A stretch of DNA of 23,601 nucleotides from a virus. Location: the IMG/VR virus record IMGVR_UViG_3300030103_000982, positions 4,364 to 27,964 of that record. One strand, 5' to 3'. This document shows, in pieces, positions 3,988 through 19,112 of this stretch. A program made the position numbers and the translations under genes. How positions within the stretch are numbered: the stretch's first letter is position 1; every line of letters starts with the position of its first letter. A model generated the notes under the pieces. The model ran no database searches. It had not been told where the DNA came from and was given only the letters and a program-made list of their open reading frames with translations.

Positions 3988-6900
3988 ATGTCAAGTTACA
4001 TCGAAACTTTTTTAAAAGAAGATGCTGATACAACTTCTGAAGAAACTTCTTTAGATGACAACCTATTATTGAATGAGTTTAATACTATATTTAATACTGA
4101 CAGTGATTTAAGTAAACAAACTCAAGAACTTTTTAAAGTTGAACCAACTGAAGTAAAACAAAAGAAACCTACCATAAGTAACATTTTTACAGAAGTAGAT
4201 GTTACATCCCCCGGAACTCCCTTTGTAAAAACTATAAAAGATATTGAAAACAGACCTTACACAACACCTGAAGGTTTGACTCTTAAATCGTATAATAAAT
4301 TAGACAGAAAGAATATCACTAAAGAATCTTTACTGAAAGATGCTTCTTTTCTATCCGATGCTCGTACCTTATTGAAGGCACGTCATAATATTGATGATGA
4401 CGAGTTAGATACACCAGATAAGATATGGGAAGCGTGGACTGAAAGACAGAGATATTATGATACAGGTAATGAGTTTACATTAGCTAGAGATTTTGATTAT
4501 TTATATGACTCAGATGATAATGATGTTAAAAACTCAAGAGTTAATAGATATGGTAGACTTTTAGATGTATGGGAAAAATATAAAGGAGAAGATTTATCTT
4601 TTAGAAAAGTAAAAGATTATATGGGTGCTACTTTCACATCTCCTTCTAATATATTCTCAGCGATGTTAGCTACTAAAGGTAAACTAGGCACAGGTGTAAT
4701 GTCTCAGTCTAGTAAGCAAGGTATTAAAACATATATTAAAGAATTTTTAAAAGGTGCAGCTAAGGTAGCTCCTGTTGAATTTGGTGTTGGATATTTACAA
4801 AGTTCAGGTAAAGAAAAGCTAAGAAGCATGACTATGAAAGAGGAGTATAGACCCGGAGTTGTAGGTTTAGAAACAGGTATTCAAGGTGCAGGTGGCTCTT
4901 TATTTGGTGGATTTAGTTCTTTATTAGAAACAAGGTCTGCAGCTAAAGCAATAGAATTAAAAGAGGCATTTAAACTTTCTAAGGAAGAAGTCAAAAAATC
5001 TGCTAAATTAAAAACAGATGAGTTTCTAAAGACAGTTGGTTTAGAAGATATACAGAGAATATCAAAAAAGTTAGAAAGATTAAATCCAGAGTTAACAGCT
5101 AAGGGTAGAGAGTTACGTAAGGATTTAACTGCAGACCCTAAAAATTTTATAGCAGGACTTCCTGTAGAGTTTCATAATAATTTAGTGGCAGCTACGCTAA
5201 GAATGGAAAAGTTAATTAAGCTAGGTCCTACAGAAAGAGTAACAGCAGGTCTTCATAGAGCTATCACCGAGGGTGTATTACAAAAAGATGGTACACGTAA
5301 ATTATTAGAAACAGCAGAGATTAAAAAAATATTGAGAGACCACAACTTAACAACAGACCAATTTGGTATGGTGTTTTTAAGTGATGTATCCGATGCTGCT
5401 AGAATATTACAATCTAAAGGACAACTAAGTAAAGCATTAACAGATTTTAAACAACCTAAAAAATTAATAAAAAAATTTGGAAAAAAATCAAAAGAGAAAA
5501 TACAATTTGATGAACTGTTAAATAAAGTGGATGCCTTGAATGAAGCTAATTTAACAGGTGGTATAACTAAGGATGTTGCTGATAATGTAGCAAAAGAAAA
5601 TAATAAAGGAATATCATTACTTAGAAATTTCTTTAAAAATGCTGACCGTGCCAAGTTAGGTATGATGACATCTCAGCCACAAACAACTATAAGAAATAAT
5701 ATAAACGGTTTATTTAGGGTGGGTGTAGATACAGGTGTATATGCACTAAATCAGGCATTACAATTAAAAAATCCTTTTAGTAAGGATACACTAGCAATGG
5801 CTAAATATATGGTTAGACCTGCAGAAGCTAGAATATTTAGAGATATACTTAAAGAAGATTTCCCTGAAGAAATGTCTAACTTATTTAGAGAGGCAGCAGA
5901 CCTAAATAATAGAATGGCAGATGATGGAGCAGTAACTAAATTTACAACAAGTAAGATGGCTTGGCTTGGAACGAAGATGAATTATTTCAATACATTGTCT
6001 GATAACTATTTTAAGCAGGCAGCCTTAACGACTTTTTTGCGTAGAGGTATAAATAATTTAGACCCTGAAAATGCTGTAAAAATGACAACGTTAGATTTAG
6101 AAACATTGTTAGCACAGAAGATACAAAAAGATTTTCCAAACATGGAAGCAACAAGAGAGTTTATATCTACTTTATCTCCTGCAGGTTTTGAACAAGCATT
6201 AAAAGATAATAAGATTGGTAATCTTGTTAAGGGTGAAAGAGTACATGACTTTTTTACACTTACTCAGACAGGTAAATTATCTGAAATACCTGATGAGGTA
6301 TTGAAAACAGCTATTCAAGATACTTATGAATTTGTGTATCAAGCAACCTTTAAAAGCGATGGATACTTAAACAGATTCAATAAGATGTTACAATCAGGTC
6401 ACAAAAATTTACCTTTTGTTATATCAACATTTTTACCATTTCCTAGATATACAGCGAACCACCTAAAAACTATCTATAATCATGTTCCTCTTATAAATAT
6501 GGTAAAGATAGAAAACATAGGTAGTAGAAAATTAACTAAAGAAGGTTATACAACTGTAGGAAAATTATTTAAAACAGACAAAGCAACTTTTTCTAAAGAC
6601 TTAGCTAGAGGAACTATGGGAACAGGTTTGTTTTTAGCTGCTTTAGAGTGGCGATATAGACAAGGGAACACTAATCATTGGTGGGAAATTAAAAGTGAAA
6701 CAGGAAAACCTATAGATGGTAGACCTATATATGGTGCATTAGCACCTTGGATATTAGCTGCTGATATAATGTATAGATATCAAACAGATACATTACCATC
6801 AGATACAGGGTTAGGGTATGAACAATACTCAAAAGATGCATCACAAGCACTCATAGGTGTTACAGTTAGACGAGGTATGGGTCTATTGTTTTTAGAAGAC

Positions 6901-7950
6901 TTTGTTAGTACTTTTAGTGAAAATAAAGAAAAGATGGATAGACCAATGATAGATGAATTTATTGGTAATGTTGGTCAGGCATTTATGATACCCACACAAA
7001 TTGTGAAAAACTTTTATGGTATATCTGATAAAGATATGAGGAAAGTTCCTGAAAGTAAAACAGGACAAACAAACATACTAGATACTATTTTAGCAAGTGC
7101 TCTTAGAGGTGCACCTGATTTTAAATCAGTAGATGTTAAAGGAGCAGTCCAAGAGTTTGAGTTTTTTGGTGAAGGTAAATTAAGGGCAGATAAATTATTT
7201 ACTAATATTCCAACTGTAGATAAACAAGCTGTTGACCCAAGACAAGGACCTAGAAGAACTGTATCTCCCATCTACAAACTTTCAGGTTTTACATTAGGAG
7301 AAGCTAAGACTATATTTGATAATGAACTTACAATTTTAAATATTCCTGATAGAGAATTTTATAAAAGAGATTACAAAAATCCACAGATAGAAGTTTCTGC
7401 ACGTGACCTTTTAGGTAAAGATGGTAGTGAATTTAATTTAGCTAAAAGAATGGCTACATATATAAGAGGTAAACCTTATCAAACTATTATAAAAGACGCA
7501 AAAGAAGTTGCTGAAAAACGTGGTGAAAAACTAGTAGCTGAATCTTTTTTTGGTCAGACTGCTCCTGTTCAAGTTGCTCCTGCACAAAGAACTACTGCTA
7601 TTATGAAAATAGCTAGATTATATGTACAAGAGGCTAGAGCTTATGCTGCATCTAAACTTGAGACAATAGAAGTTGAAGCAGGTTTTCCTTACACAAGTAA
7701 GGTAGTAAAAGATTGGAGAAGTCTATCAGGTCAGAAAACTGTAGCAGCAAATGAGCATTACAGACAGACAAATGATTTTGTTTATGATAAAAATAAAAAC
7801 TTAATTGAACCAAAAAATATATATATGGATAGAAATTATTTTATAGTTAAAGGTCCTTTAACTGATAAATCTTGGGCAAATAGAGAAAATGTATTTGTTA
7901 AATACACAGACTACGCTAAAGGTCTAGGTAAAAAAGATAGGTTAAAATAA
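3988..7950 (+). CDS. Giant putative internal/ejection virion protein, 1320 aa
   Basis: The largest gene in the window. Residues 1-60 are acidic and Ser/Thr-rich. Residues 200-320 contain Gly/Ala-rich, hydrophobic stretches (EFGVGYLQSSG; GAGGSLFGGFSS), the kind of segment that could cross a membrane during DNA ejection. Residues 310-560 are Lys-rich helices. The centre (about 770-960) has aromatic segments such as FLPFPRYTANH and NHWWEIKSE. I see no lytic transglycosylase ESG motif and no RNA polymerase DxDGD motif. GGAGG at 3975-3979 gives a good ribosome site. Size and position match the large ejected protein of podoviruses (compare T7 gp16), but the identity is inferred. Confidence 0.7.
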   Translation: MSSYIETFLKEDADTTSEETSLDDNLLLNEFNTIFNTDSDLSKQTQELFKVEPTEVKQKKPTISNIFTEVDVTSPGTPFVKTIKDIENRPYTTPEGLTLKSYNKLDRKNITKESLLKDASFLSDARTLLKARHNIDDDELDTPDKIWEAWTERQRYYDTGNEFTLARDFDYLYDSDDNDVKNSRVNRYGRLLDVWEKYKGEDLSFRKVKDYMGATFTSPSNIFSAMLATKGKLGTGVMSQSSKQGIKTYIKEFLKGAAKVAPVEFGVGYLQSSGKEKLRSMTMKEEYRPGVVGLETGIQGAGGSLFGGFSSLLETRSAAKAIELKEAFKLSKEEVKKSAKLKTDEFLKTVGLEDIQRISKKLERLNPELTAKGRELRKDLTADPKNFIAGLPVEFHNNLVAATLRMEKLIKLGPTERVTAGLHRAITEGVLQKDGTRKLLETAEIKKILRDHNLTTDQFGMVFLSDVSDAARILQSKGQLSKALTDFKQPKKLIKKFGKKSKEKIQFDELLNKVDALNEANLTGGITKDVADNVAKENNKGISLLRNFFKNADRAKLGMMTSQPQTTIRNNINGLFRVGVDTGVYALNQALQLKNPFSKDTLAMAKYMVRPAEARIFRDILKEDFPEEMSNLFREAADLNNRMADDGAVTKFTTSKMAWLGTKMNYFNTLSDNYFKQAALTTFLRRGINNLDPENAVKMTTLDLETLLAQKIQKDFPNMEATREFISTLSPAGFEQALKDNKIGNLVKGERVHDFFTLTQTGKLSEIPDEVLKTAIQDTYEFVYQATFKSDGYLNRFNKMLQSGHKNLPFVISTFLPFPRYTANHLKTIYNHVPLINMVKIENIGSRKLTKEGYTTVGKLFKTDKATFSKDLARGTMGTGLFLAALEWRYRQGNTNHWWEIKSETGKPIDGRPIYGALAPWILAADIMYRYQTDTLPSDTGLGYEQYSKDASQALIGVTVRRGMGLLFLEDFVSTFSENKEKMDRPMIDEFIGNVGQAFMIPTQIVKNFYGISDKDMRKVPESKTGQTNILDTILASALRGAPDFKSVDVKGAVQEFEFFGEGKLRADKLFTNIPTVDKQAVDPRQGPRRTVSPIYKLSGFTLGEAKTIFDNELTILNIPDREFYKRDYKNPQIEVSARDLLGKDGSEFNLAKRMATYIRGKPYQTIIKDAKEVAEKRGEKLVAESFFGQTAPVQVAPAQRTTAIMKIARLYVQEARAYAASKLETIEVEAGFPYTSKVVKDWRSLSGQKTVAANEHYRQTNDFVYDKNKNLIEPKNIYMDRNYFIVKGPLTDKSWANRENVFVKYTDYAKGLGKKDRLK

Positions 7951-9620
7951 TGGAAGATGAAGATAAAATATTAGATGATATAGACAAGTCAAATGCTAGT
8001 AGTGAATTGATTGATGCTTTCACTGAACCATTTCAGTCTGACAATTTATCTAAGTCTATGTTTGAGGCTTTGCCGGGTGTATTTGATGACCCTGTATTTG
8101 GTGGTATAAATAAAACTGTTGTTGGTGGTGCAGTTGATTCTTTAGATTTAGGATTACGTACCATTGAATCAGGTATAAAGGGTGGAGCAGCAGTTATAAA
8201 TGAAGCTAAAAATTATATTACAGGTCAAGATGATGATAGATTAAGAAGAGACATAGTTAATTTTTTTCTTACTGCAGGAGTTGGTGGTGCTACATCAGGA
8301 CCTATGCGATTACAAAAGGGTATAAGTCAGCTAATAAAAGAGGGAAAGAAAGATGAGGCAGCTAAAGTTATATTAGCTGAAAGTGATGCATTTAAGAAAG
8401 ATAATTTTAAGGAAGTTATACTAGCTCAAACTAAGAAACGTGAACCATCTCTTGCAATACAACGAAAAAAGTCTAAGCTACGTACTTTATTTGATGAGTT
8501 GCCTGAATCTGAAAGAGCACTGTTACCTAAACAAATTGATGAATTTAGTATAGCAGGATATCATGGAACATCCAAGAGTAGAGACATGGATAAGCCATTC
8601 TTTGATATAAAGTTTGGAAGAAGGCAAGACGAATTTTTAGGCGAAGGTTTTTATTTTACCCTCGACCCTAAAGTTGCTTCTGAGTATGCTAATATGAGAG
8701 CAATTAATCAGTTAGATATAGTAGGTAAGCAGGGTGGTCAAGGATTATATTCTTACAGACCAACAGGTCAGAAAGTCACAACTAGCACTTTACTTAAAGG
8801 TGTTGACATAGACGGTAATCCAATACCTGTAGGACAACAAGTAGCTAAATTTGATTTATCTAAACTTGAAAACCCTTACGTGGTTAAGACTACTAAAGAT
8901 AGAATTTACTTAAAAGAAAACTTTCAAAAGATAAAGGATGAAGGTTATGACTCTGTTTTGTTTGATAATTTTAAGGACAGGTCAAAACAGATTATGGTAT
9001 TTCCTGAACATATAGGAAAGATTGATGAAGGTAGTGGTGCAGTTAAACAAGCAACCACAAGTGGAGAGAGATATATACCTAGAGAAACTAATACTATTTC
9101 TGTGTTTCCTAAACCTGAAAAATTGTTTCCGAAGGGTGAAGCACCGAAAGGTGGTGATTATATAAATCCTGCAACAGGAGAAGTTATCACAGACAGAAAC
9201 GTTACTTCTGCTAACATAAAAATTAATCCTGATGGAAGAGCATCCTTTAAGGCTTCTGATGATAATGTGGATAATGTTGGAACTATAGGTAAGGGTAATT
9301 CACAGATAAAAGCAAACTTATTCAAGACAAGTGCAGGATGGAAATGGACACAAGCTCCGATGGGTATGGAAGATATAGGAACATTAGTGTCTGTTACACA
9401 CAAGGGTAAACATTTTTATACACTAGAAACAGATTTTACAAAAGGTGTAAATCTAAAAAAATATCCAAATCAAAAGGATGAACCAAAACTAAGACCAACT
9501 GTTGTAGGTAAAATAGAATTGGGTCAACCCATTGGTACAATCTCTGTAAGAGGAAATTCACACAACGTATATGATAAAATTAAAACATTTAATCGTGGTG
9601 GTCTAATGGCAAGAGCCTAA
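7950..9620 (+). CDS. Virion-operon protein with ADP-ribosyltransferase-like domain, 556 aa
   Basis: Last gene of the + strand operon, coupled to the giant gene by TAATG at 7948-7952. Residues 1-120 are acidic then Gly-rich. Residues 200-356 look like an ART fold of the kind found in phage polyvalent proteins (ART-PolyVal, Iyer and Aravind). They show YHGT at 204-207, the G-x-G-F-Y-F-T strand at 231-237, A-x-x-Y-A at 243-247, GYDSV at 332-336 and QIMVF at 347-351. The likely triad is H205, Y235 and Q347; the third position is often Glu in active ARTs, so activity is uncertain. Residues 380-556 are a beta-rich domain of unknown role ending FNRGGLMARA. Such enzymes modify host proteins using NAD+. 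Delivery with the DNA, like T4 Alt, is inference. Confidence 0.7.
   Translation: MEDEDKILDDIDKSNASSELIDAFTEPFQSDNLSKSMFEALPGVFDDPVFGGINKTVVGGAVDSLDLGLRTIESGIKGGAAVINEAKNYITGQDDDRLRRDIVNFFLTAGVGGATSGPMRLQKGISQLIKEGKKDEAAKVILAESDAFKKDNFKEVILAQTKKREPSLAIQRKKSKLRTLFDELPESERALLPKQIDEFSIAGYHGTSKSRDMDKPFFDIKFGRRQDEFLGEGFYFTLDPKVASEYANMRAINQLDIVGKQGGQGLYSYRPTGQKVTTSTLLKGVDIDGNPIPVGQQVAKFDLSKLENPYVVKTTKDRIYLKENFQKIKDEGYDSVLFDNFKDRSKQIMVFPEHIGKIDEGSGAVKQATTSGERYIPRETNTISVFPKPEKLFPKGEAPKGGDYINPATGEVITDRNVTSANIKINPDGRASFKASDDNVDNVGTIGKGNSQIKANLFKTSAGWKWTQAPMGMEDIGTLVSVTHKGKHFYTLETDFTKGVNLKKYPNQKDEPKLRPTVVGKIELGQPIGTISVRGNSHNVYDKIKTFNRGGLMARA
8547..9017 (+). other. ART-like (H-Y-Q) domain
   Basis: Segment encoding residues 200-356 of the 556-aa protein. 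The order YHGT, GEGFYFT, A-x-x-YA, GYDSV, then a hydrophobic strand led by Gln (QIMVF) is the core layout of PARP-like/PolyVal ADP-ribosyltransferases. I judged this by eye from the motifs and not from a profile search. Confidence 0.65.
9617..9620. other. Tail-to-tail operon junction with overlapping stop codons
   Basis: The four bases CTAA hold the TAA of the + strand ART-like gene (9618-9620) and the TAG of the - strand MazG gene (complement of 9617-9619). No intergenic space remains. I see no GC-rich hairpin followed by a T tract on either side, so no intrinsic terminator is evident here. Confidence 0.9.
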
Positions 9621-9976
9621 CGATTATCGCCTGAACCTGCGAGTGTTCCTCTCTCTTTTCTACTACTTAGTTTATGTAGATTGTCTTCCATAATCTTACC
9701 TAAGTTAGCGTCTAACTCATTCGCTAACATAGCACAGTACCAAAGCACATCACCTATCTCTGATGCTACGTTTGACTCTGTACCATCACGTATTTGTTTC
9801 TTTACTTTTCCTGCTACCTCGCCTGCCTCACTAACAAGTCCAAGAGATAAGTAAGCTATTGCATCCTTCTTAGGATATATTGCTGTAGCCTTACACTTCT
9901 CTTGATACTCGTTAGCACTTATCAAACTCTTATTATGTAACTGCATGAATTTTTTCGCCTCTTCTTCTAGCTTCAT
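9617..9976 (-). CDS. mazG: MazG-like nucleotide pyrophosphohydrolase, 119 aa
   Basis: All-alpha NTP pyrophosphatase of the MazG family, which hydrolyses (d)NTPs to monophosphates plus pyrophosphate. The metal-binding pattern ExxE...ExxD is present: E50, E53 (LVSEAGEVAGKVKK) and E73, D76 (SEIGDVLWY). The length fits a single-domain phage MazG. Phage MazG has been proposed to act on (p)ppGpp or to tune the dNTP pool; the substrate is not visible here. It is the last gene of the - strand operon and overlaps the preceding gene by 44 bases. The start is uncertain: the ATG at 9976 has only AAAAAGG directly before it, and the internal ATG at codon 11 has a better-spaced AGAGG. Confidence 0.85.
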   Translation of the reverse strand: MKLEEEAKKFMQLHNKSLISANEYQEKCKATAIYPKKDAIAYLSLGLVSEAGEVAGKVKKQIRDGTESNVASEIGDVLWYCAMLANELDANLGKIMEDNLHKLSSRKERGTLAGSGDNR

Positions 9977-10181
9977 CCTTTTTAACTCTTTCTAACTTTT
10001 GAAAGTAGGAAAGATTAAAACCTCTCTCCCACTCTCTTGCTTGCATGGTGTTAAGATTGTAGGGATTATTTAACCTACCTCTCTTAAAATCCGAAACACC
10101 TTTCATAAATTGTATTTTCAAAGGTGCATCATACTTACTTAGATTTGGATTCCTTTTTCGGCTCTTCTGCTGTCTCTGCAT
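9933..10181 (-). CDS. Ribosome modulation factor-like small protein, 82 aa
   Basis: A basic protein whose residues 27-60 (FKRGRLNNPYNLNT, then AREWERGFNLSYF) follow the layout of ribosome modulation factor/CrpP: G-x-x-x-F-x-x-G, then N-P-Y, a short loop, and W-x-x-G-F/W ending the second helix. RMF silences ribosomes by promoting 100S dimers in stationary cells. Many phages carry small proteins of this shape, and ribosome binding has not been shown for this one. The first 20 residues are very basic (RQQKSRKR). AGGAG eight bases before the ATG supports this start even though it overlaps the previous gene by 47 bases. The C-terminus overlaps mazG. Confidence 0.6.
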   Translation of the reverse strand: MQRQQKSRKRNPNLSKYDAPLKIQFMKGVSDFKRGRLNNPYNLNTMQAREWERGFNLSYFQKLERVKKDEARRRGEKIHAVT

Positions 10182-10392
10182 TTTCCTGTCTCCTTTCTAA
10201 ATATTTGAGTATCATTGATAGTCTATCATCGTACTTACCAATCTCTCCTACCTCTTTGTCCATAGCTTCAATAATATCAGAGTGTTCTCCAATACCTGTA
10301 GACCTACTTAAATATATTTCTACATTAGCTATGTGCTTATTTATATGTCCTACATAGTAAGACTTCAAAGCTGATAATAACATTTCTCTCAT
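10135..10392 (-). CDS. Conserved phage hypothetical protein, 85 aa
   Basis: A helical small protein (MREMLLSALKSYYVGHINKH) with a central GIGEHSDIIEAMDKE segment and a charged Glu/Lys tail. Proteins with this opening and the GIGEH motif are familiar to me from marine phages, always as hypothetical. It starts in an ATGA overlap with the upstream nuclease-like gene, with GGGAG upstream, and overlaps the RMF-like gene at its end. Helix-helix packing suggests a small dimeric or adaptor protein, but nothing in the sequence reveals a function. Confidence 0.75.
   Translation of the reverse strand: MREMLLSALKSYYVGHINKHIANVEIYLSRSTGIGEHSDIIEAMDKEVGEIGKYDDRLSMILKYLERRQENAETAEEPKKESKSK
10340..10368 (-). 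promoter_or_regulatory. Weak candidate sigma70 promoter
   Basis: On the - strand TTGAAG (10368-10363), 17 bases, TATAAA (10345-10340). The -35 matches only 4 of 6, the -10 5 of 6. It would serve the RMF-like and mazG genes. Listed because the 17-base spacing is the same as in the four stronger candidates. Confidence 0.3.
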
Positions 10393-10808
10393 TGTTTGTC
10401 TCCCTTAAATGTTTTAATTACATCAGATGAAAATAATTTATCAAGTTTTAGTAAATACATTCTTGATGCATTATGGTCTCCACCTGCTACACTTCTCTTG
10501 TAATCTAATTTACCAATTAGTTTCTTGAGATTATCTACACTAAATACTAATGTACAGAATATATCTTTACCTATGCATAGGTTATGAAACCAATAGTCTG
10601 CCTCTGTTGCATTTATACCACTAGGCTTACCATATGATTCATATTCAATAGCTATGTTGCCTGTTCTCTGCCACATATCTCTTTCACTTTTTACTTCTAT
10701 CTTTTTATCTTGTAACATATCTGCTACAAACTGTTCTCTAACTTTACCATACTCTAGGTCGATGTCAAACTTTTTTCTGTTTTCTTTACTTGGTGATAGA
10801 TTTTCCAT
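10389..10808 (-). CDS. Putative PD-(D/E)XK-like nuclease-fold protein, 139 aa
   Basis: Opens KFDIDLEYGKVREQFVADML, then KKIEVKSERDMW-x-x-TGNIAIEYESYGKPSGI, then ATEADYW. The pattern Gly-x-x-x-Glu (G21, E25) followed by a strand ending E38-V-K40 is what the PD-(D/E)XK nuclease fold shows, with E55 on the next strand as a further candidate ligand; the usual Asp before E-x-K is not obvious. I recall this family as hypothetical in marine phages. It sits between the small membrane protein, which it overlaps, and the 85-aa gene. A resolvase or restriction-like nuclease role is possible; confidence in enzymatic activity is low. Confidence 0.7.
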   Translation of the reverse strand: MENLSPSKENRKKFDIDLEYGKVREQFVADMLQDKKIEVKSERDMWQRTGNIAIEYESYGKPSGINATEADYWFHNLCIGKDIFCTLVFSVDNLKKLIGKLDYKRSVAGGDHNASRMYLLKLDKLFSSDVIKTFKGDKQ

Positions 10809-10965
10809 TTACTTGTCCTTTGCGTTTAGGTTTAATGTGTAATAGTTCTCTTATATGTAGCTTTCTACCCTTGAAGAAAACAATTAAGTTTATCAGAGTG
10901 TTGATGCTAATGGCGATAAGTAACCACCATTGCCACCATATTAGTTGTACCGTATTTTCTAACAT
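10786..10965 (-). CDS. Small single-pass membrane protein, 59 aa
   Basis: Short gene found by reading the stretch between RNR and the nuclease-like gene. The ATG (10965-10963) overlaps the RNR stop as TAATG, and the TAA lies at 10788-10786 inside the next gene. Residues 8-31 are hydrophobic (LIWWQWWLLIAISINTLINL), followed by a strongly basic tail (KGRK...KPKRKG). This predicts one membrane helix with the tail in the cytoplasm. Size, single helix and basic tail recall small holins such as that of T7, but that is a resemblance only. The frame and coupled start support a real gene. Confidence 0.65.
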   Translation of the reverse strand: MLENTVQLIWWQWWLLIAISINTLINLIVFFKGRKLHIRELLHIKPKRKGQVNGKSITK

Positions 10966-10984
10966 TAACTAGCCTGTATGTCAA
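10956..10984 (-). promoter_or_regulatory. Weak candidate sigma70 promoter at the end of RNR
   Basis: On the - strand TTGACA (10984-10979), 17 bases, TAGAAA (10961-10956), with TG one base before the -10. The -10 matches 4 of 6. The predicted start would fall after the ATG of the 59-aa gene, so it would serve the nuclease-like gene instead. Confidence 0.3.
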
Positions 10985-12878
10985 CCATCTCGCAAGCATC
11001 TGCTGTGCAAGCTAGTTCTCTACCACCACTAGTTGTATCTTCTTTCTCATAGTCTGCTAACTTTGACCAATCAATAAACTCAGGCATTTCATGCGATGCT
11101 GCATAATACATTGCTTCAGTTATATCTTGATATGGTGCTTGAGCATACGTATGGTCGCTGAAAGGTAGGAAGGATATACCTGATACTTCATCGAAGTTTT
11201 TATATACCCATGCTCCTACATCCATCCACTCATCCTCTTTTACAGACACAGTTACTGAAGGTTTGTGTTCACACCAATGTCTTTGAAACATAAGCCAATA
11301 CTCTAACTGCTCAATAGCTGACATCTCTGTTCTAGTAATAGCACCTGATGGTGACTTCATAGGAAAACTAAAAACAGTTGTACTGTCAGGTTTCATAACA
11401 CATGGCTCACTTGGTATGCCACTATCTTTCATAAACTGTGTGAGTGGGTCTTTGTTGTCACCACGCACAGTTCTAACATAATAGTCATTATGTCTAGCAT
11501 GGATACCTGATGCACTATCAACTAATTGACTGACTGTACCACTAGGTTTGACACAAGTTATAGCAGTTGACTGTGGTATGCCTAAATCTTTAGCAAACTT
11601 TTTATTAGTTTCTACTGCTACATCTCTTAGTATAGTTAGTATTTCCTCTGTCCATATATTAGTATCTAGTATACCTGTTAGGGAAACTCCTAATAGCCTT
11701 TCTTCTTCTGTATTATCTTTCCATACTTTACGTAGATACTTAAAGTTAGTAAGAGTAGATTGAAATGTACCAAGTATAGTAGCCATACGAACCTTTTCTT
11801 TCAAAGATACTAGGTCATCTGTGGCTCTACACACTACCTCTGTAAGATTGCAGAACTGATAAGGTCTAAGTATAATCTCACTACATGGATTACAACCAAA
11901 GTAATAGTCTGCATCTCGTCTGCCATTCTCAAGTGCTTTTACTTTAGCAGCCTGTCTATTAAATATACCACGTTCTCCTGACTTAGATTCATATAATGAT
12001 GTCCACTCTCGCATGAATGTACCCATCTCAGGCTTACCTTTAAATGCAACAGAGTTGTTGGCAAGTGCTCTTTGACCTTCATTCTCCCACCATTGACCTG
12101 ACTTAGCATGACGCATTTGGTCATCTCCTAAATTGGATAATGATATAAGTGCCGACCTACGTACTCCACCAACAACTACAACCTCTCCTATCTTGCACAT
12201 AATATCGTGACACTCAATAGGAAATAATCTTCTACCTTTAGCACCTTTGAACTTTTGTATGCAGAACTGAAACAACTCAACTAATGGTGCAGGTCCTGAT
12301 GCTCTACCACCAAATGTCTTGAGTCTTGCACCTGCAGGTCTTACCTGTGACACATCCCAAGTAGGCACTTGTCCTACATATAACATAGCTATAAGTTCTC
12401 TTAATGCTTTTGCCCAACCGGGTCTACTGTCACCAACAGTGATTATAGTAGTGCTGTCCTCAAAATGTTCATTGACTACAGGTAGCTTGTCTACATTCTC
12501 TCTTTCAACAGAGAAACCTACACCTGTACCACACATAAGTATGTACATACACTCATCAAAACTACGTGGACTATCTACAGGTATGTAGCTACAATTATAA
12601 CCACCTACATGACATCTATCTAAAGCAGGTCCTGCTGTCATCAATGCTCTCATACTAGGCATTACACCCAAACTAGTTATGTGCTCTGTAAGTTTTTCTT
12701 TTAATGCTTTAGTTATATTGTATGAATAGTTTTTCTGTAAATGATTATCCATATAATCAAAGTATCTACCTACAGTCTCTCCCCAATTTTCCCTTCTCTG
12801 CTCATCATCTTTCCACCTTGCATAGCGAGAGAGTGCTATGAAGTTTTGATAATCTGTCGGTAAGTAATTATTTATCAT
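10965..12878 (-). CDS. nrdJ: Adenosylcobalamin-dependent (class II) ribonucleotide reductase, 637 aa
   Basis: Reduces ribonucleoside triphosphates to deoxyribonucleotides using a B12-generated thiyl radical, supplying dNTPs for phage DNA. It resembles the monomeric Lactobacillus leichmannii type but is about 100 residues shorter. The active-site strand FGCNPCSEI carries N330, thiyl cysteine C332 and E334. C96 (NCSY) and C343 form the expected redox pair. The KPSGTVS loop is at 444-450, and the shuttle cysteines C624-x4-C629 (CTADAC) lie near the C-terminus. No class I radical subunit is needed. GGAG six bases upstream supports the ATG. A promoter-like GTGACA-N17-TATAAA lies 60-90 bases upstream. 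The stop is coupled to the 59-aa gene. Activity depends on cobalamin from the host or sea water. Confidence 0.95.
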   Translation of the reverse strand: MINNYLPTDYQNFIALSRYARWKDDEQRRENWGETVGRYFDYMDNHLQKNYSYNITKALKEKLTEHITSLGVMPSMRALMTAGPALDRCHVGGYNCSYIPVDSPRSFDECMYILMCGTGVGFSVERENVDKLPVVNEHFEDSTTIITVGDSRPGWAKALRELIAMLYVGQVPTWDVSQVRPAGARLKTFGGRASGPAPLVELFQFCIQKFKGAKGRRLFPIECHDIMCKIGEVVVVGGVRRSALISLSNLGDDQMRHAKSGQWWENEGQRALANNSVAFKGKPEMGTFMREWTSLYESKSGERGIFNRQAAKVKALENGRRDADYYFGCNPCSEIILRPYQFCNLTEVVCRATDDLVSLKEKVRMATILGTFQSTLTNFKYLRKVWKDNTEEERLLGVSLTGILDTNIWTEEILTILRDVAVETNKKFAKDLGIPQSTAITCVKPSGTVSQLVDSASGIHARHNDYYVRTVRGDNKDPLTQFMKDSGIPSEPCVMKPDSTTVFSFPMKSPSGAITRTEMSAIEQLEYWLMFQRHWCEHKPSVTVSVKEDEWMDVGAWVYKNFDEVSGISFLPFSDHTYAQAPYQDITEAMYYAASHEMPEFIDWSKLADYEKEDTTSGGRELACTADACEMVDIQAS

Positions 12879-12881
12879 TTT

Positions 12882-13043
12882 CTACTCCATTGTTACTTTC
12901 ATATTCTTTATCTTTACACCCTCTAAGTCATGGTATAATTCTTTTATATAATCTTCAAAATCTTCTGTCACATCTCCATCAGAAGGAACAGGATATTCTT
13001 CAGGGTCTACATTTAGGGTAATCATTATCTTTACTCTAATCAT
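12882..13043 (-). CDS. Small conserved phage protein, 53 aa
   Basis: Found by hand in the stretch upstream of RNR. It begins MIRVKIMITLNVDPEEYPVP and continues with an acidic segment (DGDVTEDFEDYI) and a short closing strand (GVKIKNMKVT). I recall the EYPVP-DGDVTE pattern from small conserved proteins of marine phages. The ATG (13043-13041) overlaps the preceding stop as TAATG, GAGG lies about ten bases upstream, and RNR starts three bases after its stop. A beta-alpha-beta fold is plausible; function unknown. The RNR promoter candidate lies inside this gene. Confidence 0.7.
   Translation of the reverse strand: MIRVKIMITLNVDPEEYPVPSDGDVTEDFEDYIKELYHDLEGVKIKNMKVTME
12943..12971 (-). promoter_or_regulatory. 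Sigma70-like promoter upstream of RNR
   Basis: On the - strand GTGACA (12971-12966), a 17-base spacer, and TATAAA (12948-12943): 5 of 6 matches in each box. The predicted start is near 12936, giving a leader of about 58 bases to the RNR ATG. It lies within the 53-aa gene. Confidence 0.55.
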
Positions 13044-13384
13044 TATGCGTTACCCTCAGTATCTGTATTAAATGACAGGTAAACAACATTGTCATCTTTA
13101 TCTACTACTTTAGCTTTTTCATTTGAGTTTCTATTCTCATACTCATCAGCCTTTGCCTCTAACTTATCTCTTACATAATCATCTTCTTCCATGACAGGTA
13201 TAGAAGAACATATAGTTCTACAAAAAGACATCAGAGAATAAAAATCATCATCATTCAATGGGTTCTCGTGTGATGACATAATAGTTACATCAACTTGACC
13301 TGTCCACAATCTTCTAGGGTCTAACTGTGGTCTGACACTAATTAGAAAATCTTCAGGTCTCATACTTCTTCTAAATTCTTTCAT
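13043..13384 (-). CDS. Conserved phage hypothetical protein, 113 aa
   Basis: Begins MKEFRRSMRPEDFLISVRPQ, then GQVDVTIMSS, NPLNDDDFYSLMSFC and an acidic, charged C-terminal third. The MRPEDF opening and the NPLNDDDF motif are familiar to me from marine phages, where the protein is uncharacterised. It starts in an ATGA overlap with endonuclease I, with AGAGGAAAG upstream, and its TAA overlaps the start of the 53-aa gene. Always lying among DNA-metabolism genes suggests a supporting role there, but no motif tells which. Confidence 0.8.
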   Translation of the reverse strand: MKEFRRSMRPEDFLISVRPQLDPRRLWTGQVDVTIMSSHENPLNDDDFYSLMSFCRTICSSIPVMEEDDYVRDKLEAKADEYENRNSNEKAKVVDKDDNVVYLSFNTDTEGNA

Positions 13385-13869
13385 TTTTTTACTTTCCTCT
13401 TAGGTTTAGTCTTATATCTTCTTACGATTTTAGTACCTTTAAACTTTATAAATTTAGGATGTACATTCTTTCCTTTTTCTTTTAGCCAATCTTCAGGTAT
13501 TATTCTATCGTAATATCTAAAACCATGTTTATCACACCATTGACCATAAGAAGATTTAGCACCCTTTTGTAACTTAGTTCTACTGTTTGTAAATACAAAT
13601 CGTATATCTAAATCAGGGTGTTGTTTTTTTATAGCTATATGTTTCTTTCTATCTGATGCTAAAAATCTACCCTTAGTTTCTATTATTATTCCATTGTTTA
13701 GTATAAAATCAGGAGTGTACGTTCTGTAAGTTAAGTCTTCCCACTCTATCTTTAGACTTTCATAACCATATTCGCATTTAAGTTCAGTGAGGTATATGGA
13801 TATAGCATGTTCTAAGCCACTCCTATATCCATATTTTATAGCCTCTCTTCTTACTTTATGAGGAGACAC
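13381..13869 (-). CDS. T7-type endonuclease I (Holliday junction resolvase), 162 aa
   Basis: Homologue of T7 gp3, which resolves four-way DNA junctions and helps degrade host DNA and trim replication intermediates. PD-(D/E)XK residues are all visible: E20 (SGLE), D54 (TYTPDF), E64 and K66 (IIIETKGR). The DRKKH, HPDLDIRFVFTNSRTK and SYGQWCDKHGFR segments follow the T7 order closely, and the basic C-terminal tail (KTKPKRKVKK) resembles that of T7. The start is GTG at 13869, directly abutting the preceding TAA (TAAGTG). It overlaps the next gene by four bases (ATGA). Acts as a homodimer in the known family. Confidence 0.93.
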   Translation of the reverse strand: MSPHKVRREAIKYGYRSGLEHAISIYLTELKCEYGYESLKIEWEDLTYRTYTPDFILNNGIIIETKGRFLASDRKKHIAIKKQHPDLDIRFVFTNSRTKLQKGAKSSYGQWCDKHGFRYYDRIIPEDWLKEKGKNVHPKFIKFKGTKIVRRYKTKPKRKVKK

Positions 13870-14088
13870 TTAGAAGTTTCGCCAAGTTATACCTGTGAAT
13901 GGACTATAGGAAGTGCTATATCCTAAGTTCTTTAGTTCTTCCTTTACAGCATCCTCAGCTACTTTTCTAGCCTCTATAGCATTACGCAAACCTTCAGTAC
14001 GTATTTCACGATACTGCTTTTTAGCCTCTGCGAGTTGCTTTTCCATTTCCTGTATTTCTTCTTTTAATTCATCCATTGACTTACTCAT
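13870..14088 (-). CDS. Small coiled-coil protein, 72 aa
   Basis: Residues 3-55 are an almost unbroken charged helix (MDELKEEIQEMEKQLAEAKK) with heptad character, ending in a short aromatic tail (SPFTGITWRNF). It lies between the exonuclease (ATGA overlap, AGGAG upstream) and endonuclease I (its TAA abuts the GTG start). A dimeric coiled-coil partner for either nuclease is conceivable but not shown. No named family recognised. Confidence 0.75.
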   Translation of the reverse strand: MSKSMDELKEEIQEMEKQLAEAKKQYREIRTEGLRNAIEARKVAEDAVKEELKNLGYSTSYSPFTGITWRNF

Positions 14089-14939
14089 GCTTTTCTCCTT
14101 TCTAATTTTACGTACTGAACCATTCTAGGTTCTTTAGCTTGAGACACCTGTGAAGGTAACTCTTCGAGAGTTTCCCAACAGTCTTGTCTGTATGAACAAA
14201 ATGTACAGTTTTTACTTAAAACCATGTTACCTGTAGGTTTACCTCTAAAAGTTTCAGGCTCAGGTTCAAAGCATCGTACTAACTTGTCTGACTCTGCAGA
14301 CTTTATATTCTTTTTGATTTTATCAATCTCTTTGTTCATCTCTATGTGAGCAGGAACATACTTAAATTGACCATTCGCTTTATTGACAACCCACCAACCA
14401 CCTGCCTTTTTGTTAGAGGCTTTTGCGTAACCTGCGAGTTGTCCTACATAACCAAAGCTATCGCCTGAATGTAAAGTCTCATAAGAATCAAACTTATATT
14501 TGTATGACCAATCAGATGCCGACTTGATATCATCAACTGCATCATTCATAACTAAATCATACGTACCTGATATAGTATTATTTTTATCAATGTCAAGAGA
14601 TACAGTATCACTATCTTCAAAGTCTACTTTAGCTGACCTAAGAATAGCTTTGAACACAGCCTCAACTATATCTCCTATCATCATATTCATAACAAATGTA
14701 GTAGGTCTAGGTATCGCTGTCTCAGGTTTATTCTTCTCATACCATAGCTGACAAGAGGGTCTACCAATATTTGACATGCGAAACCTAAAATCCGTATCCC
14801 TTTTTGAGTTGAACTGACGATTCAGTGCATCCTTTATATCAGATGCTACCTGCTCAATAGTCTCAGAACTCATAGCAGTCTCACCCTTACTTGCATTTTG
14901 TAAGTATTGATGAATCATCATTTCAGCAGGGTGGTTCAT
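14085..14939 (-). CDS. Cas4/RecB-type PD-(D/E)XK exonuclease with Fe-S cluster, 284 aa
   Basis: The RecB-family nuclease core is visible: E93 (MIGDIVEAVF), D128 (SGTYDLV), D137-x-K139 (DDIKSAS) and the Q167-x3-Y171 motif (GQLAGYAKA). Four cysteines in the AddB/Cas4 arrangement, C63 then C245-x2-C248-x5-C254, should bind a 4Fe-4S cluster that ties the two ends of the domain together. Enzymes of this family degrade DNA ends; in T7-like phages the same position holds the gp6 exonuclease, so this is probably its functional counterpart, working next to the SSB, polymerase and endonuclease I. Starts in TAATG with the SSB stop, with GAGG eight bases upstream. Confidence 0.9.
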   Translation of the reverse strand: MNHPAEMMIHQYLQNASKGETAMSSETIEQVASDIKDALNRQFNSKRDTDFRFRMSNIGRPSCQLWYEKNKPETAIPRPTTFVMNMMIGDIVEAVFKAILRSAKVDFEDSDTVSLDIDKNNTISGTYDLVMNDAVDDIKSASDWSYKYKFDSYETLHSGDSFGYVGQLAGYAKASNKKAGGWWVVNKANGQFKYVPAHIEMNKEIDKIKKNIKSAESDKLVRCFEPEPETFRGKPTGNMVLSKNCTFCSYRQDCWETLEELPSQVSQAKEPRMVQYVKLERRKA

Positions 14940-15844
14940 TAAGCTACCTCATCATCAATATCAATGAACTCATCTACAGTCTGCATATCATCTTTGCTGA
15001 TATCATCCTTCGCTTTCATATCCCACTCGTTAATTATGTAAGAGTTATAGTTCTCAATCCAAGAAATAAAATTGGAAAACATCTCTTGGTCTTTGTCATC
15101 GAGAGTAACAGCATTAATCAAATCGAGACTAGCTGTAGGTAGATAAAAAGAATTACCATTTGGTAGCTTTCTTTCTTCAGTATTCAAAGCTATCGTATGC
15201 TGAACAGGTAACTTCTTCATCTGTGCTAACTTAGCGAAAGGAATACCTAAAGTCTTGAAGGCATCTCTATTATCTATCTCCCATATAAAAGGATGAGCAC
15301 TTGTATCTAAAGAGTTACCCTTTTCATCTGTAGGTTTATCTAACTCAATAGTACCAAAGATAACACGAACACGTTTGATTTGCTTTATCAAATCCTGTGT
15401 GGCTACAGGTAAAGCCTGAAAGTCTTTTATCCAACCTGAAGGTTTACCACAATTAAAACCACCCTGATTATCTTTCAAATCTATATTAAGATTATCAGCC
15501 ATAATAGTCTTATGATAAATACCCATAGGGTCTCCTGCCTTTGCAGACATATTCTTCACAAATCTTTTGTACATAAATCTTTGTACAAAGGGTCTTATCT
15601 TGGCTGACTTAGAGTAGAATATATTCTCATCAGGAACATCTAACTTGTATGTTCCCCCTTCTACTACTTCCACATTAACATTCTTACCATTGACTTCTGC
15701 CTCGCCCATGATAGGTGAATGATTAATCTTTAATCTAGGAAGATTGTTTGTCTTCCCATCACTGCTAGTGCCTTCATTAGCAATACCCATTGCCTTAGCC
15801 ATAGCATTATAATTGTTAGTATCTATTGTAACTAAATTACTCAT
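14939..15844 (-). CDS. Putative single-stranded DNA-binding protein, 301 aa
   Basis: Lies between polymerase and exonuclease, where T7-like phages encode gp2.5, and ends in a strongly acidic tail (VDEFIDIDDEVA) as phage ssDNA-binding proteins do. The body is beta-rich with basic segments (QRFMYKRFVKNM). An OB fold cannot be confirmed by eye. The acidic tail would bind polymerase and helicase. Good AGGAG upstream, and a near-consensus promoter sits 30-60 bases before the ATG, so high expression is likely, fitting an SSB. Its stop is coupled to the exonuclease start. Confidence 0.7.
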   Translation of the reverse strand: MSNLVTIDTNNYNAMAKAMGIANEGTSSDGKTNNLPRLKINHSPIMGEAEVNGKNVNVEVVEGGTYKLDVPDENIFYSKSAKIRPFVQRFMYKRFVKNMSAKAGDPMGIYHKTIMADNLNIDLKDNQGGFNCGKPSGWIKDFQALPVATQDLIKQIKRVRVIFGTIELDKPTDEKGNSLDTSAHPFIWEIDNRDAFKTLGIPFAKLAQMKKLPVQHTIALNTEERKLPNGNSFYLPTASLDLINAVTLDDKDQEMFSNFISWIENYNSYIINEWDMKAKDDISKDDMQTVDEFIDIDDEVA

Positions 15845-15873
15845 ATGTAATTCTCCTTTCTAAAAGTTTTATT

Positions 15874-15902
15874 GTTATATCACAAAACGTCTTTGGTGTC
15901 AA
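15874..15902 (-). promoter_or_regulatory. Strong sigma70-like promoter for the SSB gene
   Basis: On the - strand TTGACA (15902-15897), a 17-base spacer, TATAAC (15879-15874), with TGA immediately before the -10 (extended -10). Matches 6/6 and 5/6. It overlaps the last codons and stop of the polymerase gene. Predicted start near 15867 gives a leader of about 23 bases containing AGGAG. Confidence 0.75.
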
Positions 15903-17892
15903 GCCAATTATTACCTATTTTTGCCTCTAGTAATAATGGAACATTCAAAGATATTGCAAACTGTTGCTCTATAAGAGCCTTCATGGTATTATTTATATTC
16001 TTTATAAGAGAGATAACAGTATCTATCTCATCAGGGTGTACATCAATAACGATAGAATCGTGTACACTATTTACAACTTTAGATTGTAATACTTCTAACT
16101 TCTTCGCTATGTGTGTAAGTATAAGAGGTACAATATCAGCAGTAGCGAATGACTGCACAGGATAGTTCTTTATCTGCGTGAAGTGAGAAACAGAACCATC
16201 TCTGCGTCTTACTACATCAGGGAAACTAAACTCTCTGCCTGATGGTATTCTAACCTTACCTGTATTCATAACTTCTTTAGCCAATTTGGAGTGCCATAGT
16301 GCGATTCCTTTATACTTTTCCGTGAAGTGTTTGTAATATGTAGCCTGAGAAGGTGTCCTGCCAAATCCTGTTGCTCCATACAAGGGAGCAAACGTGTGTG
16401 CCTTCGCCTCTTGCCTAGATGTTTTTTCGCCTGCATCACTAATAATACGAGCAGTATAACTATGCACATCAAATCCATCTTCTATCTCCTTCATAGCAAT
16501 CTTGTCTTGTGATAGGTATGCTGATACTCTAAACTCTAATTGAGCAAAGTCTGCCTCAAGTATCTGTCCACCCTTCCAACGTGATATAAACACCTTCTTC
16601 ACAGGGAATGTACCACCTCTAGGCATATTCTGCATGTTAGGGTCAGCACCACTAAATCTTCCTGTAGAAGTTCGATGCTGTAACAACCTAACATGTAGCT
16701 TACCATCAGGCTTGATATGTGTGTTGATACCTTCAACAAAAGATGAAAGGTATGTATCAAGTGCTGATAGTCTCTGTAAGTCCGTAAGAAAGTTCATTGC
16801 GTCTGTCATATTCTTTTGTTTAGCTATACCATGTAACATAGCTAGATTAGTTTTGTTTACACTAAATCCATTAGCACTGACCCACTTCGCAGTAGGAGCA
16901 TTGAACTTTAATCCTGCAATAATCTTATTAGGTACAAATAAATATCCAACTGCATCACAATCACTACATTTTGTAGGTTTAGCAAAGGGTGTACCATCTT
17001 TTCTAGTCTTTCTGTAGTAGCCTGTGCCTACACAACTTGAACACTGCTCTGCTCTTGTCTTGTACACAATGTCAGAGTTTTGCCCTATCGCATGTCTGTA
17101 GTCAGACTTATCCATGTATGGAGTAAAACTGTTTGCCCACATAGTCTTGTCGTGTGGCTTTCTACTGTATATCACCCAAGACATCTGCTCAGGACTATTA
17201 AGATTGATAGGTGTATCTCCCATCAACTCTTTGACTTGTCTGTTTAAACGTATCTCTATATCTGACTTCTCTTTCTCAAACTCACTACGAACTTCATCTA
17301 ACTTATCCTTATCTACATGAAATCCATTCTGATATATTCTAGCTAGAGTGATTGCAACCTTATTTGTAAGGACAACTGTATCCATCAAACTTGCATACTC
17401 TGTGGTATTGAGTTTTCTGTATATGACATCAGATAACTCTTGGGTAGCACGTAAGTCTGCAGACAGATAGTCTGCTAACTCTTGTGGTGGTATCTCATCA
17501 ATAGGAACTTTGTTAGCAAAGTATTCCTTCATGGTATCTTGCTTTTTAGTATCAAGGTCATATCGAATAGCACATGCCTCAAGCGATAGAGGTTGCTTGT
17601 TACCTCTCTGCAATACATACTCTCCAAGCATTGTATCAAAAACAGAACCATTGTACGTAAAGCCACACTCCCACAACCACAGTAAGTCGTGTACAATATT
17701 ATGTCCTATCAGGATTGTAGCATCATCTAGTAACTTTTGCACTCCACTAAAGTCATCTCTAAACAAATACTCTTCGCCTTTATCTGTCAGACATCCAACC
17801 ATCACTAACTTATTACTAGCCTCGAATGGGTCGAGATGTAACTTACCATCTCTGTGTGTAACTGTGTTCTCTACATCAAGAGTTAACTTCAT
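15880..17892 (-). CDS. Family A DNA polymerase with 3'-5' exonuclease and zinc-finger insertion, 670 aa
   Basis: Replicative polymerase of the T7/PolI class. Exonuclease residues are D6 and E8, N65 and D69 (GHNIVHD), and Y142-x3-D146. Polymerase motif A is D448 (EADFAQLEFR), motif B is R493-x3-K497-x3-F501-x3-YG, and motif C is H611-D612 (NSVHDS). F501 matches E. coli F762. Between the exonuclease and the palm, C284-x2-C287 (CSSCVGTGYY) and C309-x2-C312 (CSDCDAVGYL) form a DnaJ-like CxxCxGxG zinc finger, near where T7 polymerase carries its thioredoxin-binding loop. From memory, this insertion is known in HMO-2011-type phages. ATGA overlap with helicase. The stop overlaps the SSB promoter. 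Confidence 0.95.
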   Translation of the reverse strand: MKLTLDVENTVTHRDGKLHLDPFEASNKLVMVGCLTDKGEEYLFRDDFSGVQKLLDDATILIGHNIVHDLLWLWECGFTYNGSVFDTMLGEYVLQRGNKQPLSLEACAIRYDLDTKKQDTMKEYFANKVPIDEIPPQELADYLSADLRATQELSDVIYRKLNTTEYASLMDTVVLTNKVAITLARIYQNGFHVDKDKLDEVRSEFEKEKSDIEIRLNRQVKELMGDTPINLNSPEQMSWVIYSRKPHDKTMWANSFTPYMDKSDYRHAIGQNSDIVYKTRAEQCSSCVGTGYYRKTRKDGTPFAKPTKCSDCDAVGYLFVPNKIIAGLKFNAPTAKWVSANGFSVNKTNLAMLHGIAKQKNMTDAMNFLTDLQRLSALDTYLSSFVEGINTHIKPDGKLHVRLLQHRTSTGRFSGADPNMQNMPRGGTFPVKKVFISRWKGGQILEADFAQLEFRVSAYLSQDKIAMKEIEDGFDVHSYTARIISDAGEKTSRQEAKAHTFAPLYGATGFGRTPSQATYYKHFTEKYKGIALWHSKLAKEVMNTGKVRIPSGREFSFPDVVRRRDGSVSHFTQIKNYPVQSFATADIVPLILTHIAKKLEVLQSKVVNSVHDSIVIDVHPDEIDTVISLIKNINNTMKALIEQQFAISLNVPLLLEAKIGNNWLDTKDVL

Positions 17893-19112
17893 GCCTCGTA
17901 CCTCGCTGTTATATAATCAAGTTCGCAATGAACTGTACCATGCCAACCTGTCAACTTATTCTTGACTACGTTTAAATGTCTCTGTGCATCTTCTTCGTCT
18001 TGACCCTCTACTTGTGGATTCTTAGCTATCAATATCATCAAATCAGCCTCGGCAGCTTTACCTGTACGACTGCCTTCCATCATAGCTTGGTTAAGAATAA
18101 CCTTGCCCTCTGCCTCTGCTGACAACTGCGACATATACAATACAGCACAGTTGTATGTCTTAGCTATCTGCCTTGCGTGTATGGCATTAGCTTTGAGTGC
18201 CTCATCATGCCTTGCAAATCCTGCAGTAGTAGCAAACTTATCTCCCATGTCAAGCACGAGTATGTCAGGCTTTTCTGCTTTGCATACACTCTCGACCCAA
18301 GCCATGTCTCTGTTTGATGCATCTCTAATCCTGATGTTCTCAAAGACAGGCTTGTACTTTTGTAGTGCTGTCTCTTTATTCTTTGTAATATCACTAATCT
18401 TCATACCTGTAGATGCAGTCAAGTAACGTACACCAACTCTGTGATAACTTTCTTCGTTACAGAGTATGATACACTTTGCACCTTGATGAGCAAAGCCATT
18501 AGGACTAGCAATCAAACTCGCATGGAAAGATGTCTTACCTGTATTAGGTCTAGCACCTATCTCAACGAGATGACCTGCATTGATACCATCAACTTTACGT
18601 GTGAGACTTGGAATATTGAATGACCATCTAGCCTCTAAGTCATTCTTCTCAAGCAGAGTATCAATAGTAATGTCATCCCACTCAATATTAAGATTGGGTG
18701 TAAAGTCATCTGCATACAACTCAAGAATATTTCTTAGTGGCTCAAGCGAGGACTTAACACCATTGACATAATCAAAACCAAGATTAGCAATATCCTCGCC
18801 AACAACTTGTTGGAATAGTTTGGATAGCACCTCTTGGGCAATGTCTTCTCCAAGTGGTACTTCCTTCTTTATTGTGTTGAACAGTGATGAGTAAGCCTGC
18901 TTTTGTGCAGTAGTCATAGATGCATTATTTGCTAGGAACAAAGCCTCTATCTCATCAGGGGTAACTGTTCTCTCATATCTATTGATTGCTTGGTCAAGTG
19001 CCTGTTTAATCTTACGCACATCTTTACTAAACAATCTGTCAGGACACTTTGCACCTCTATGTGCATCATAGAATGGCTTGTCCATCAAACTTCGTATTAA
19101 TGATAATTCCAT
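17889..19112 (-). CDS. DnaB-type replicative helicase, 407 aa
   Basis: RecA-fold hexameric helicase unwinding DNA at the phage fork. Walker A is GARPNTGKT (186-194), the catalytic Glu is E220 (CNEES), Walker B is DILVLD (283-288), Q329 (MSQLS) is the motif H3 glutamine, and the H4 region with KNKLTGW is near 384-390. Residues 1-150 are a helical N-domain that replaces the primase half found in T7 gp4. The primase is a separate gene immediately upstream, five bases away, with AAAGGAG across its stop. The end overlaps the polymerase start by four bases, keeping the replisome genes in one coupled block. Confidence 0.9.
   Translation of the reverse strand: MELSLIRSLMDKPFYDAHRGAKCPDRLFSKDVRKIKQALDQAINRYERTVTPDEIEALFLANNASMTTAQKQAYSSLFNTIKKEVPLGEDIAQEVLSKLFQQVVGEDIANLGFDYVNGVKSSLEPLRNILELYADDFTPNLNIEWDDITIDTLLEKNDLEARWSFNIPSLTRKVDGINAGHLVEIGARPNTGKTSFHASLIASPNGFAHQGAKCIILCNEESYHRVGVRYLTASTGMKISDITKNKETALQKYKPVFENIRIRDASNRDMAWVESVCKAEKPDILVLDMGDKFATTAGFARHDEALKANAIHARQIAKTYNCAVLYMSQLSAEAEGKVILNQAMMEGSRTGKAAEADLMILIAKNPQVEGQDEEDAQRHLNVVKNKLTGWHGTVHCELDYITARYEA

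What the first reader, a model, noticed from the sequence alone, without database searches (positions are those of the whole stretch)
8547..9017. ADP-ribosyltransferase-like domain in the last gene of the virion operon
Residues 200-356 of the 556-aa protein show the YHGT, GEGFYFT, A-x-x-YA, GYDSV and QIMVF blocks in the order of ART/PolyVal domains. The gene directly follows the giant internal-type protein and is coupled to it. A virion-carried ART could modify host proteins at entry, as T4 Alt does. The third triad position is Gln (Q347), so the chemistry or target may differ or activity may be lost.
Basis: partly seen in the sequence, partly recalled or inferred. Interest (0 to 1): 0.75.

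Follow-up and report, generated by a model that had tools for sequence, protein, structure and literature searches.

The report
Phage virion-operon ADP-ribosyltransferase as swappable cargo
A marine virus of bacteria carries, in the last gene of its particle-building operon, an enzyme domain of a known type that probably tags host molecules with ADP-ribose at entry; close relatives carry the same domain in a different particle gene, or other cargo in this gene, so it looks like an exchangeable payload.

Summary
Residues 174-363 of the 556-aa protein (7950-9620) form an ADP-ribosyltransferase domain of Pfam family ART-PolyVal. The domain alone passes the family cut-off (E 1.1e-7), all 22 aligned relatives match too, and a 22-sequence AlphaFold model (pLDDT 78) finds only ARTs in its first 13 PDB hits (weak E-values) and named ART-PolyVal proteins in the viral library (E 2e-6). 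H205, Y235 and Q347 are invariant in all 22 and dN/dS is 0.06-0.08, so H-Y-Q is a conserved configuration, not decay.

In relatives the same ART sits in the gene between portal and scaffold; only the window and a 99% copy have it in the operon-terminal gene. Related phages fill that gene with other cargo before a GGL...MAR tail. A near-sister (95.5% DNA identity across 11 kb) lacks the gene, with the exchange breakpoint at the stop codon, but has the ART beside its portal.

Best explanation: a virion-loaded, exchangeable payload of the polyvalent-effector type, injected to mono-ADP-ribosylate a host molecule. Virion presence, activity and target are inferred. A new variant of a known kind.

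The parts
7950..9620 (+). 556-aa gene, last of the late (virion) operon ('slot T'); start overlaps upstream stop (TAATG)
7950..8466 (+). N-terminal region aa 1-172, conserved (37-71% identity) in slot-T genes of L017, L018, L019, L021 that carry other cargo; proposed virion-targeting part (inferred)
8469..9038 (+). ADP-ribosyltransferase domain aa 174-363 (ART-PolyVal, PF18760; H-Y-Q)
8562..8564 (+). H205, first catalytic position (aligns with exotoxin A YHGT motif)
8652..8654 (+). Y235, second catalytic position (aligns with exotoxin A GFY motif)
8988..8990 (+). Q347, third catalytic position; Q in 22/22 sequences
9087..9617 (+). Domain B, aa 380-556: second cargo domain without family match; 90% identical to domain B next to the portal-adjacent ART of near-sister G008; found alone (no ART) in slot T of L018, L019, L201
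9594..9617 (+). C-terminal tail RGGLMARA, shared by slot-T proteins with unrelated cargo
3988..7950 (+). 1320-aa upstream gene, presumed internal/ejection protein; every contig with the slot-T N-terminal region has it
9617..9976 (-). Convergent MazG gene; its 3' end is the breakpoint of the module exchange with G008

Best explanation
The gene encodes a modular virion effector. Its N-terminal ~170 residues (and perhaps the GGLMARA tail) load it into the particle with the giant upstream protein. Its middle is an H-Y-Q ADP-ribosyltransferase of the ART-PolyVal type. It is ejected with the DNA and transfers a single ADP-ribose from NAD+ to a host macromolecule early in infection; domain B may contribute target binding or regulation. 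The ART(+B) unit is an exchangeable cassette that in most relatives rides in the portal-adjacent protein instead. Shown: ART fold and family, conservation of the three motif residues, cassette exchange between genes, purifying selection. Inferred: virion presence, injection, NAD+ use, mono- rather than poly-transfer, host target, role of domain B.
For: PF18760 over cut-off for the domain; 22/22 sequences match, H/Y/Q invariant. AF2 pLDDT 78.3, pTM 0.71; Foldseek PDB ranks 1-13 are all ARTs (exotoxin A, diphtheria toxin, ParT, cholix) at E 0.025-0.24; BFVD best hit an ART-PolyVal protein, E 2.2e-6, probability 1.00. Sequence profile against PDB: the top nine hits are all exotoxin A-type ARTs, best E 0.056. 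Relatives sit between portal and scaffold in about 20 contigs, as single gene (L026) or in 700-1800-aa proteins, some with LPD23 or L5 gp82-like domains. ART tree: window nested among portal-adjacent ARTs, 100/98 support. Slot T with other cargo. Near-sister G008. dN/dS 0.06-0.08. Published prediction that polyvalent ARTs are packaged and modify host proteins: PMC5512222, PMC9503650.
Against: No virion proteomics for this group was found. PDB Foldseek E-values are weak and TM-scores low (0.29-0.44 for these hits); residues 211-229, between the His and Tyr motifs, are modelled with low confidence. The canonical third residue (E or D) is absent. The upstream giant protein has no family match, so 'ejection protein' rests on position and on a weak (23-24%) match to hypothetical proteins of CRP-2 and CRP-13. 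Convergent MazG and replication genes follow directly, so expression timing is inferred.
Confidence: 0.6

Rival explanations
1. Catalytically dead ART fold (pseudo-enzyme): Q347 abolishes transfer; the domain only binds NAD+ or a host or virion protein.
For: Third residue is Q in all 22, whereas N4-like virion RNA polymerase ARTs show E there by eye alignment.
Against: H205 and Y235 are kept everywhere together with the surrounding motifs (GEGFYFT or GEGYYFT, DRSKQI-VFPE); dN/dS 0.06-0.08; Q is a named alternative in the H-Y-[EDQ] clade, and an unrelated polyvalent ART (phage Y3) also shows Q by eye.
Confidence: 0.2
2. NAD+ hydrolase (NADase) or nucleic-acid modifier rather than a protein modifier: on entry it depletes NAD+ or marks RNA/DNA, for instance to disarm defence.
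For: ARTs of the two large macromolecule clades include NADases and nucleic-acid modifiers (PMC9503650).
Against: No match to defence-related models; the closest solved ARTs by profile are protein modifiers.
Confidence: 0.15
3. Not a virion protein: a late-expressed cytoplasmic enzyme that acts in the producing cell (as T4 ModA/ModB do) and merely shares the operon.
For: No direct proof of packaging; the gene lies at the operon end beside early genes.
Against: The same ART is fused into portal-adjacent giant proteins; the slot-T N-terminus is found only beside the 1320-type giant protein and the gene is missing when that protein is replaced.
Confidence: 0.2
4. Structural or maturation role: domain B and the tail act in assembly, ART is incidental.
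For: Domain B and the tail occur without ART in slot T (L018, L019, L201).
Against: The ART is maintained under purifying selection and occurs without domain B (L026, L053, L054).
Confidence: 0.1

Closest known systems
ART-PolyVal (PF18760), ART domains of phage and conjugative-element polyvalent proteins (Iyer 2017, PMC5512222)
   Same: Passes the domain cut-off; motif order; virion-gene neighbourhood; relatives lie in large multidomain proteins, some with LPD23 and L5 gp82-like domains
   Different: Third active-site residue Q instead of the described D; here in a mid-size operon-terminal gene with exchangeable cargo
ART domain of N4-like virion RNA polymerases (Roseovarius Plymouth podovirus 1, CBX87992)
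   Same: ART in a virion gene; same YHGT / A..YA / GYDG blocks
   Different: Fused to a virion RNA polymerase; E at the third position and F for Y by eye alignment; profile match very weak (0.05)
T4 Alt
   Same: Proposed mode: head-packaged ART injected with DNA
   Different: R-S-E clade, no sequence kinship detected; Alt is proven in virions, this is not
Exotoxin A / cholix / diphtheria toxin catalytic domains
   Same: Best PDB matches by profile and by fold; YHGT and GFY motifs align with exotoxin A
   Different: Distant (12-16% identity), E at the third position, eukaryotic target, secreted toxins
HMO-2011-type phages (HMO-2011, CRP-2, CRP-13)
   Same: Replication module, DNA polymerase with DnaJ insert, gene order
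   Different: These three isolates lack the slot-T gene; no isolate in the phage collection matched this ART convincingly by tblastn

Membership tests
ART-PolyVal (PF18760) | Score over curated cut-off | tested here: met
   33.1 bits against 31.2 for the domain alone; 28.8, just under, for the whole protein; 22/22 members match at E<=0.1, best 1.8e-9
ART-PolyVal (PF18760) | ART fold | tested here: met
   AF2 pLDDT 78; first 13 PDB hits and named viral hits are ARTs; PDB E-values weak
ART-PolyVal (PF18760) | H in strand 1 and Y in strand 2 | tested here: met
   H205 and Y235 invariant, in predicted strands 29-34 and 61-64 of the model
ART-PolyVal (PF18760) | D in strand 5 (H-Y-D, Iyer 2017) | tested here: not met
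   Q347, invariant Q in 22/22. The broader clade is H-Y-[EDQ], and E or Q is seen by eye in other polyvalent ARTs, so this lowers the match to the H-Y-D subgroup, not to the clade
Virion-packaged effector (T4 Alt-like mode) | Protein present in the virion and delivered | not testable with these tools
   Only operon position, coupling and the portal-adjacent position of relatives
T4 Alt family | R-S-E active site | tested here: not met
   H-Y-Q; among ART families only ART-PolyVal matches strongly
Polyvalent protein | Several effector or LPD domains in one polypeptide near virion genes | tested here: inconclusive
   The window protein has ART plus uncharacterised domain B; its relatives L002 and L003 match LPD23 and L5 gp82 models near or above cut-off
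HMO-2011-type phage | DNA polymerase A with partial DnaJ central domain | tested here: met
   PF00684 (E 0.0019, under cut-off) at aa 279-318 between exonuclease and polymerase domains, with CXXCXGXG-like motifs; 65% identity to the HMO-2011 polymerase; criterion in PMC9038755

The most novel reading that the evidence does not exclude
These phages run a polymorphic-effector scheme in the virion: a loading head and a constant GGL...MAR tail carry exchangeable enzymatic cargo (ART, domain B, an L5 gp82-like domain, and a further possible ART-like cargo), drawn from the same cassette pool as the portal-adjacent polyvalent protein, so that the injected payload can be swapped between two virion loading sites.
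Probability: 0.4. Interest if true: 0.65.

Novelty: new variant of a known kind. Interest (0 to 1): 0.47.

Why it matters
HMO-2011-type phages are a dominant, widespread group of marine viruses (PMC9038755), and how they take over cells is largely unknown. A conserved H-Y-Q transferase in their virion genes is a candidate first-strike effector. The two-slot cassette exchange gives a natural experiment (near-identical phages with the ART in different virion genes) and a handle, the N-terminal region and tail, for finding further payloads that sequence searches miss.

Tried and rejected
Full-length tblastn against phage records: nothing. ART-only tblastn at E<=10: only chance-level matches. Prokaryote genome scan: no relative. 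The first 6-sequence model was poor (pLDDT 65) and was replaced. Attempts to link the window to its own head module failed: contigs reached through the tail gene or the DNA polymerase do not join both ends, so whether this phage also has a portal-adjacent ART is unknown. The 0/11 result for the N-terminal region had no positive control and is used only where the junction itself was read (G008). The domain B tree was unresolved and is not used. An ADP-ribosylhydrolase partner was sought: none in the window record or in G008.

Full report
Check of the observation. The 556-aa gene at 7950-9620 (+) exists and starts one base inside the stop codon of the 1320-aa gene upstream (TAATG). Pfam ART-PolyVal PF18760 matches aa 204-358 at E 2.4e-6 for the whole protein, slightly under its cut-off; for the domain alone it is over the cut-off (33.1 bits against 31.2, E 1.1e-7), and all 22 members of the family alignment match it. 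A profile from distant relatives gives 267 bits for the real protein and at most 12 for 2000 shuffles. This is far beyond chance.

Fold. AlphaFold2 on the 22-sequence alignment A6 gave pLDDT 78.3 and pTM 0.71, with all five models at similar confidence. Foldseek against the PDB: ranks 1 to 13 are all ADP-ribosyltransferases (exotoxin A, diphtheria toxin, ParT, cholix), at weak E-values of 0.025-0.24 and TM 0.29-0.44 by query length. Against viral models the top hit is an ART-PolyVal protein of crAss-like phage cr130_1 (E 2.2e-6, probability 1.00), and several further hits are named PolyVal ART. A sequence profile against the PDB also puts exotoxin A-type ARTs first, aligning YHGT and GFY (best E 0.056). 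Taken together the ART fold is well supported.

Active site. H205, Y235 and Q347 are invariant in 22 of 22 sequences down to 46% identity. Iyer and colleagues describe polyvalent ARTs as H-Y-D (PMC5512222) and the wider clade as H-Y-[EDQ] (PMC9503650). By-eye alignment of other phage ARTs shows E at this position in N4-like virion RNA polymerases and Q in the polyvalent protein of phage Y3. dN/dS of the domain between close relatives is 0.06-0.08, and 0.18 for window against L010 (synonymous sites are near saturation for the wider pairs, but the closest pair, L009 and L010, gives 0.058). The Q is therefore a maintained configuration. My inference, from general knowledge of ART enzymes, is mono-transfer or weak hydrolysis rather than chain elongation.

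What phage it is. The DNA polymerase carries a partial DnaJ-type insert like the one that defines HMO-2011-type phages (criterion in PMC9038755) and is 65% identical to that of HMO-2011; class II ribonucleotide reductase, MazG and endonuclease I genes are also present. The source record is a 27,964-base virus contig, about half the length of isolate genomes, and no portal gene was found in it.

Where the ART normally lives. Scans of viral contigs for the gene, the ART and the giant protein collected relatives. In about 20 contigs the ART lies in the gene between portal and scaffold: as a single gene (L026), near the N-terminus of 700-1400-aa proteins, or inside larger ones, some with LPD23 or L5 gp82-like regions, followed by one of several cargo domains (B, C, gp82-like) and a conserved GG-DDIPA region. 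Only the window and a 99% copy have it in the operon-terminal gene, called slot T here. The ART tree nests the window among portal-adjacent ARTs with 100/98 support, so the cassette most likely moved from the portal-adjacent gene into slot T.

Slot T is a cargo site. Contigs with a related 1320-type giant protein carry a slot-T gene with other content: L017 and L021 carry domain C; L018, L019, L020 and L201 carry domain B without ART; L179, L207 and L220 carry another large domain. Features in common are a related N-terminal ~170 aa in window, L017, L018, L019 and L021 (37-71% identity; not detectably shared by L201, L179, L207 and L220) and a C-terminal GGL...MAR tail in nearly all. L194 has a distant relative of the giant protein without such a gene, so the link is not absolute.

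Near-isogenic comparison. Contig G008 is 95.5% identical to the window over 9617-20834. Directly upstream of that point its two last virion genes are unrelated and slot T is missing: its 1373-aa giant protein ends at the same TAA that ends the window's ART gene, CTAACGATTATC in both. G008 instead has ART+B beside its portal, its ART 68% and its domain B 90% identical to the window's. The window's ART is closest to L002 and L003 (82-83%), so its cassette is mosaic. The slot-T gene therefore seems to travel with its giant protein as a module, which supports a functional link between the two. HMO-2011, CRP-2 and CRP-13 also lack it.

Mechanism. The best-supported account is a virion-loaded effector: loading by the N-terminal region together with the giant protein, ejection with DNA, ADP-ribosylation of a host molecule early in infection. 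The enzyme family and cassette exchange are shown; loading, injection, activity and target are inferred. Rivals are a dead ART, an NADase or nucleic-acid modifier, and a cytoplasmic late enzyme.

Novelty. ARTs in phage virion-gene proteins are a published theme (PMC5512222, PMC9503650). New here are the H-Y-Q branch in HMO-2011-type phages, its movement between two virion genes, and the slot with exchangeable cargo. The HMO-2011-type survey mentions an ADP-ribosylhydrolase in five genomes; no ART was mentioned in the passages read (PMC9038755).

Noticed in passing
L179:10000-11931 (-), L207, L220:16261-18882 (-): Slot-T cargo with YHGS ... LLSTSRDPNVSMSPSF ... GHVEAELAVAFPE, which by eye recalls an ART with STS and E-x-E motifs; no Pfam, NCBIfam or PDB match. 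The L220 record (G025) also encodes an ADP-ribosylhydrolase (PF03747, E 5e-41): possible writer and eraser pair.
   Followed up: partly
window 9594-9617; C-termini of L005, L042, L055, L062, L064 portal-adjacent proteins: C-terminal [KR]GGL tails are shared by slot-T and portal-adjacent cargo proteins; the 178-aa virion-operon protein of G008 ends KGGLMSRRV and the window's 167-aa protein ends RGLMGRR. Candidate particle-loading tag.
   Followed up: partly
window 9617: Sharp recombination breakpoint between virion and replication modules at the convergent stop codons (95.5% identical beyond, unrelated directly before) compared with G008.
   Followed up: yes
window 19888-20811 (-): Tyrosine recombinase (Phage_integrase, E 4e-18) within the replication module.
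   Followed up: no
L002:6145-11343, aa ~340-390: The portal-adjacent polyvalent protein has an LHEIQHAIQ zinc-peptidase-like motif (weak DUF6782 match), LPD23 and an L5 gp82-like domain around the ART.
   Followed up: no
L017:8408-10186, aa 421-551: Alternative slot-T cargo (domain C) has an L5 gp82-like (PF25735, E 8e-6) region that also follows the ART in portal-adjacent proteins.
   Followed up: partly
L037:1369-2409: A 346-aa ART gene in a different phage type, overlapping the start of an 811-aa gene and following a terminase-like gene.
   Followed up: no
window 21095-21739 and 23035-23601 (-): Pyrimidine-dimer glycosylase-like protein, and a C5 cytosine methylase cut by the contig end.
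   Followed up: no
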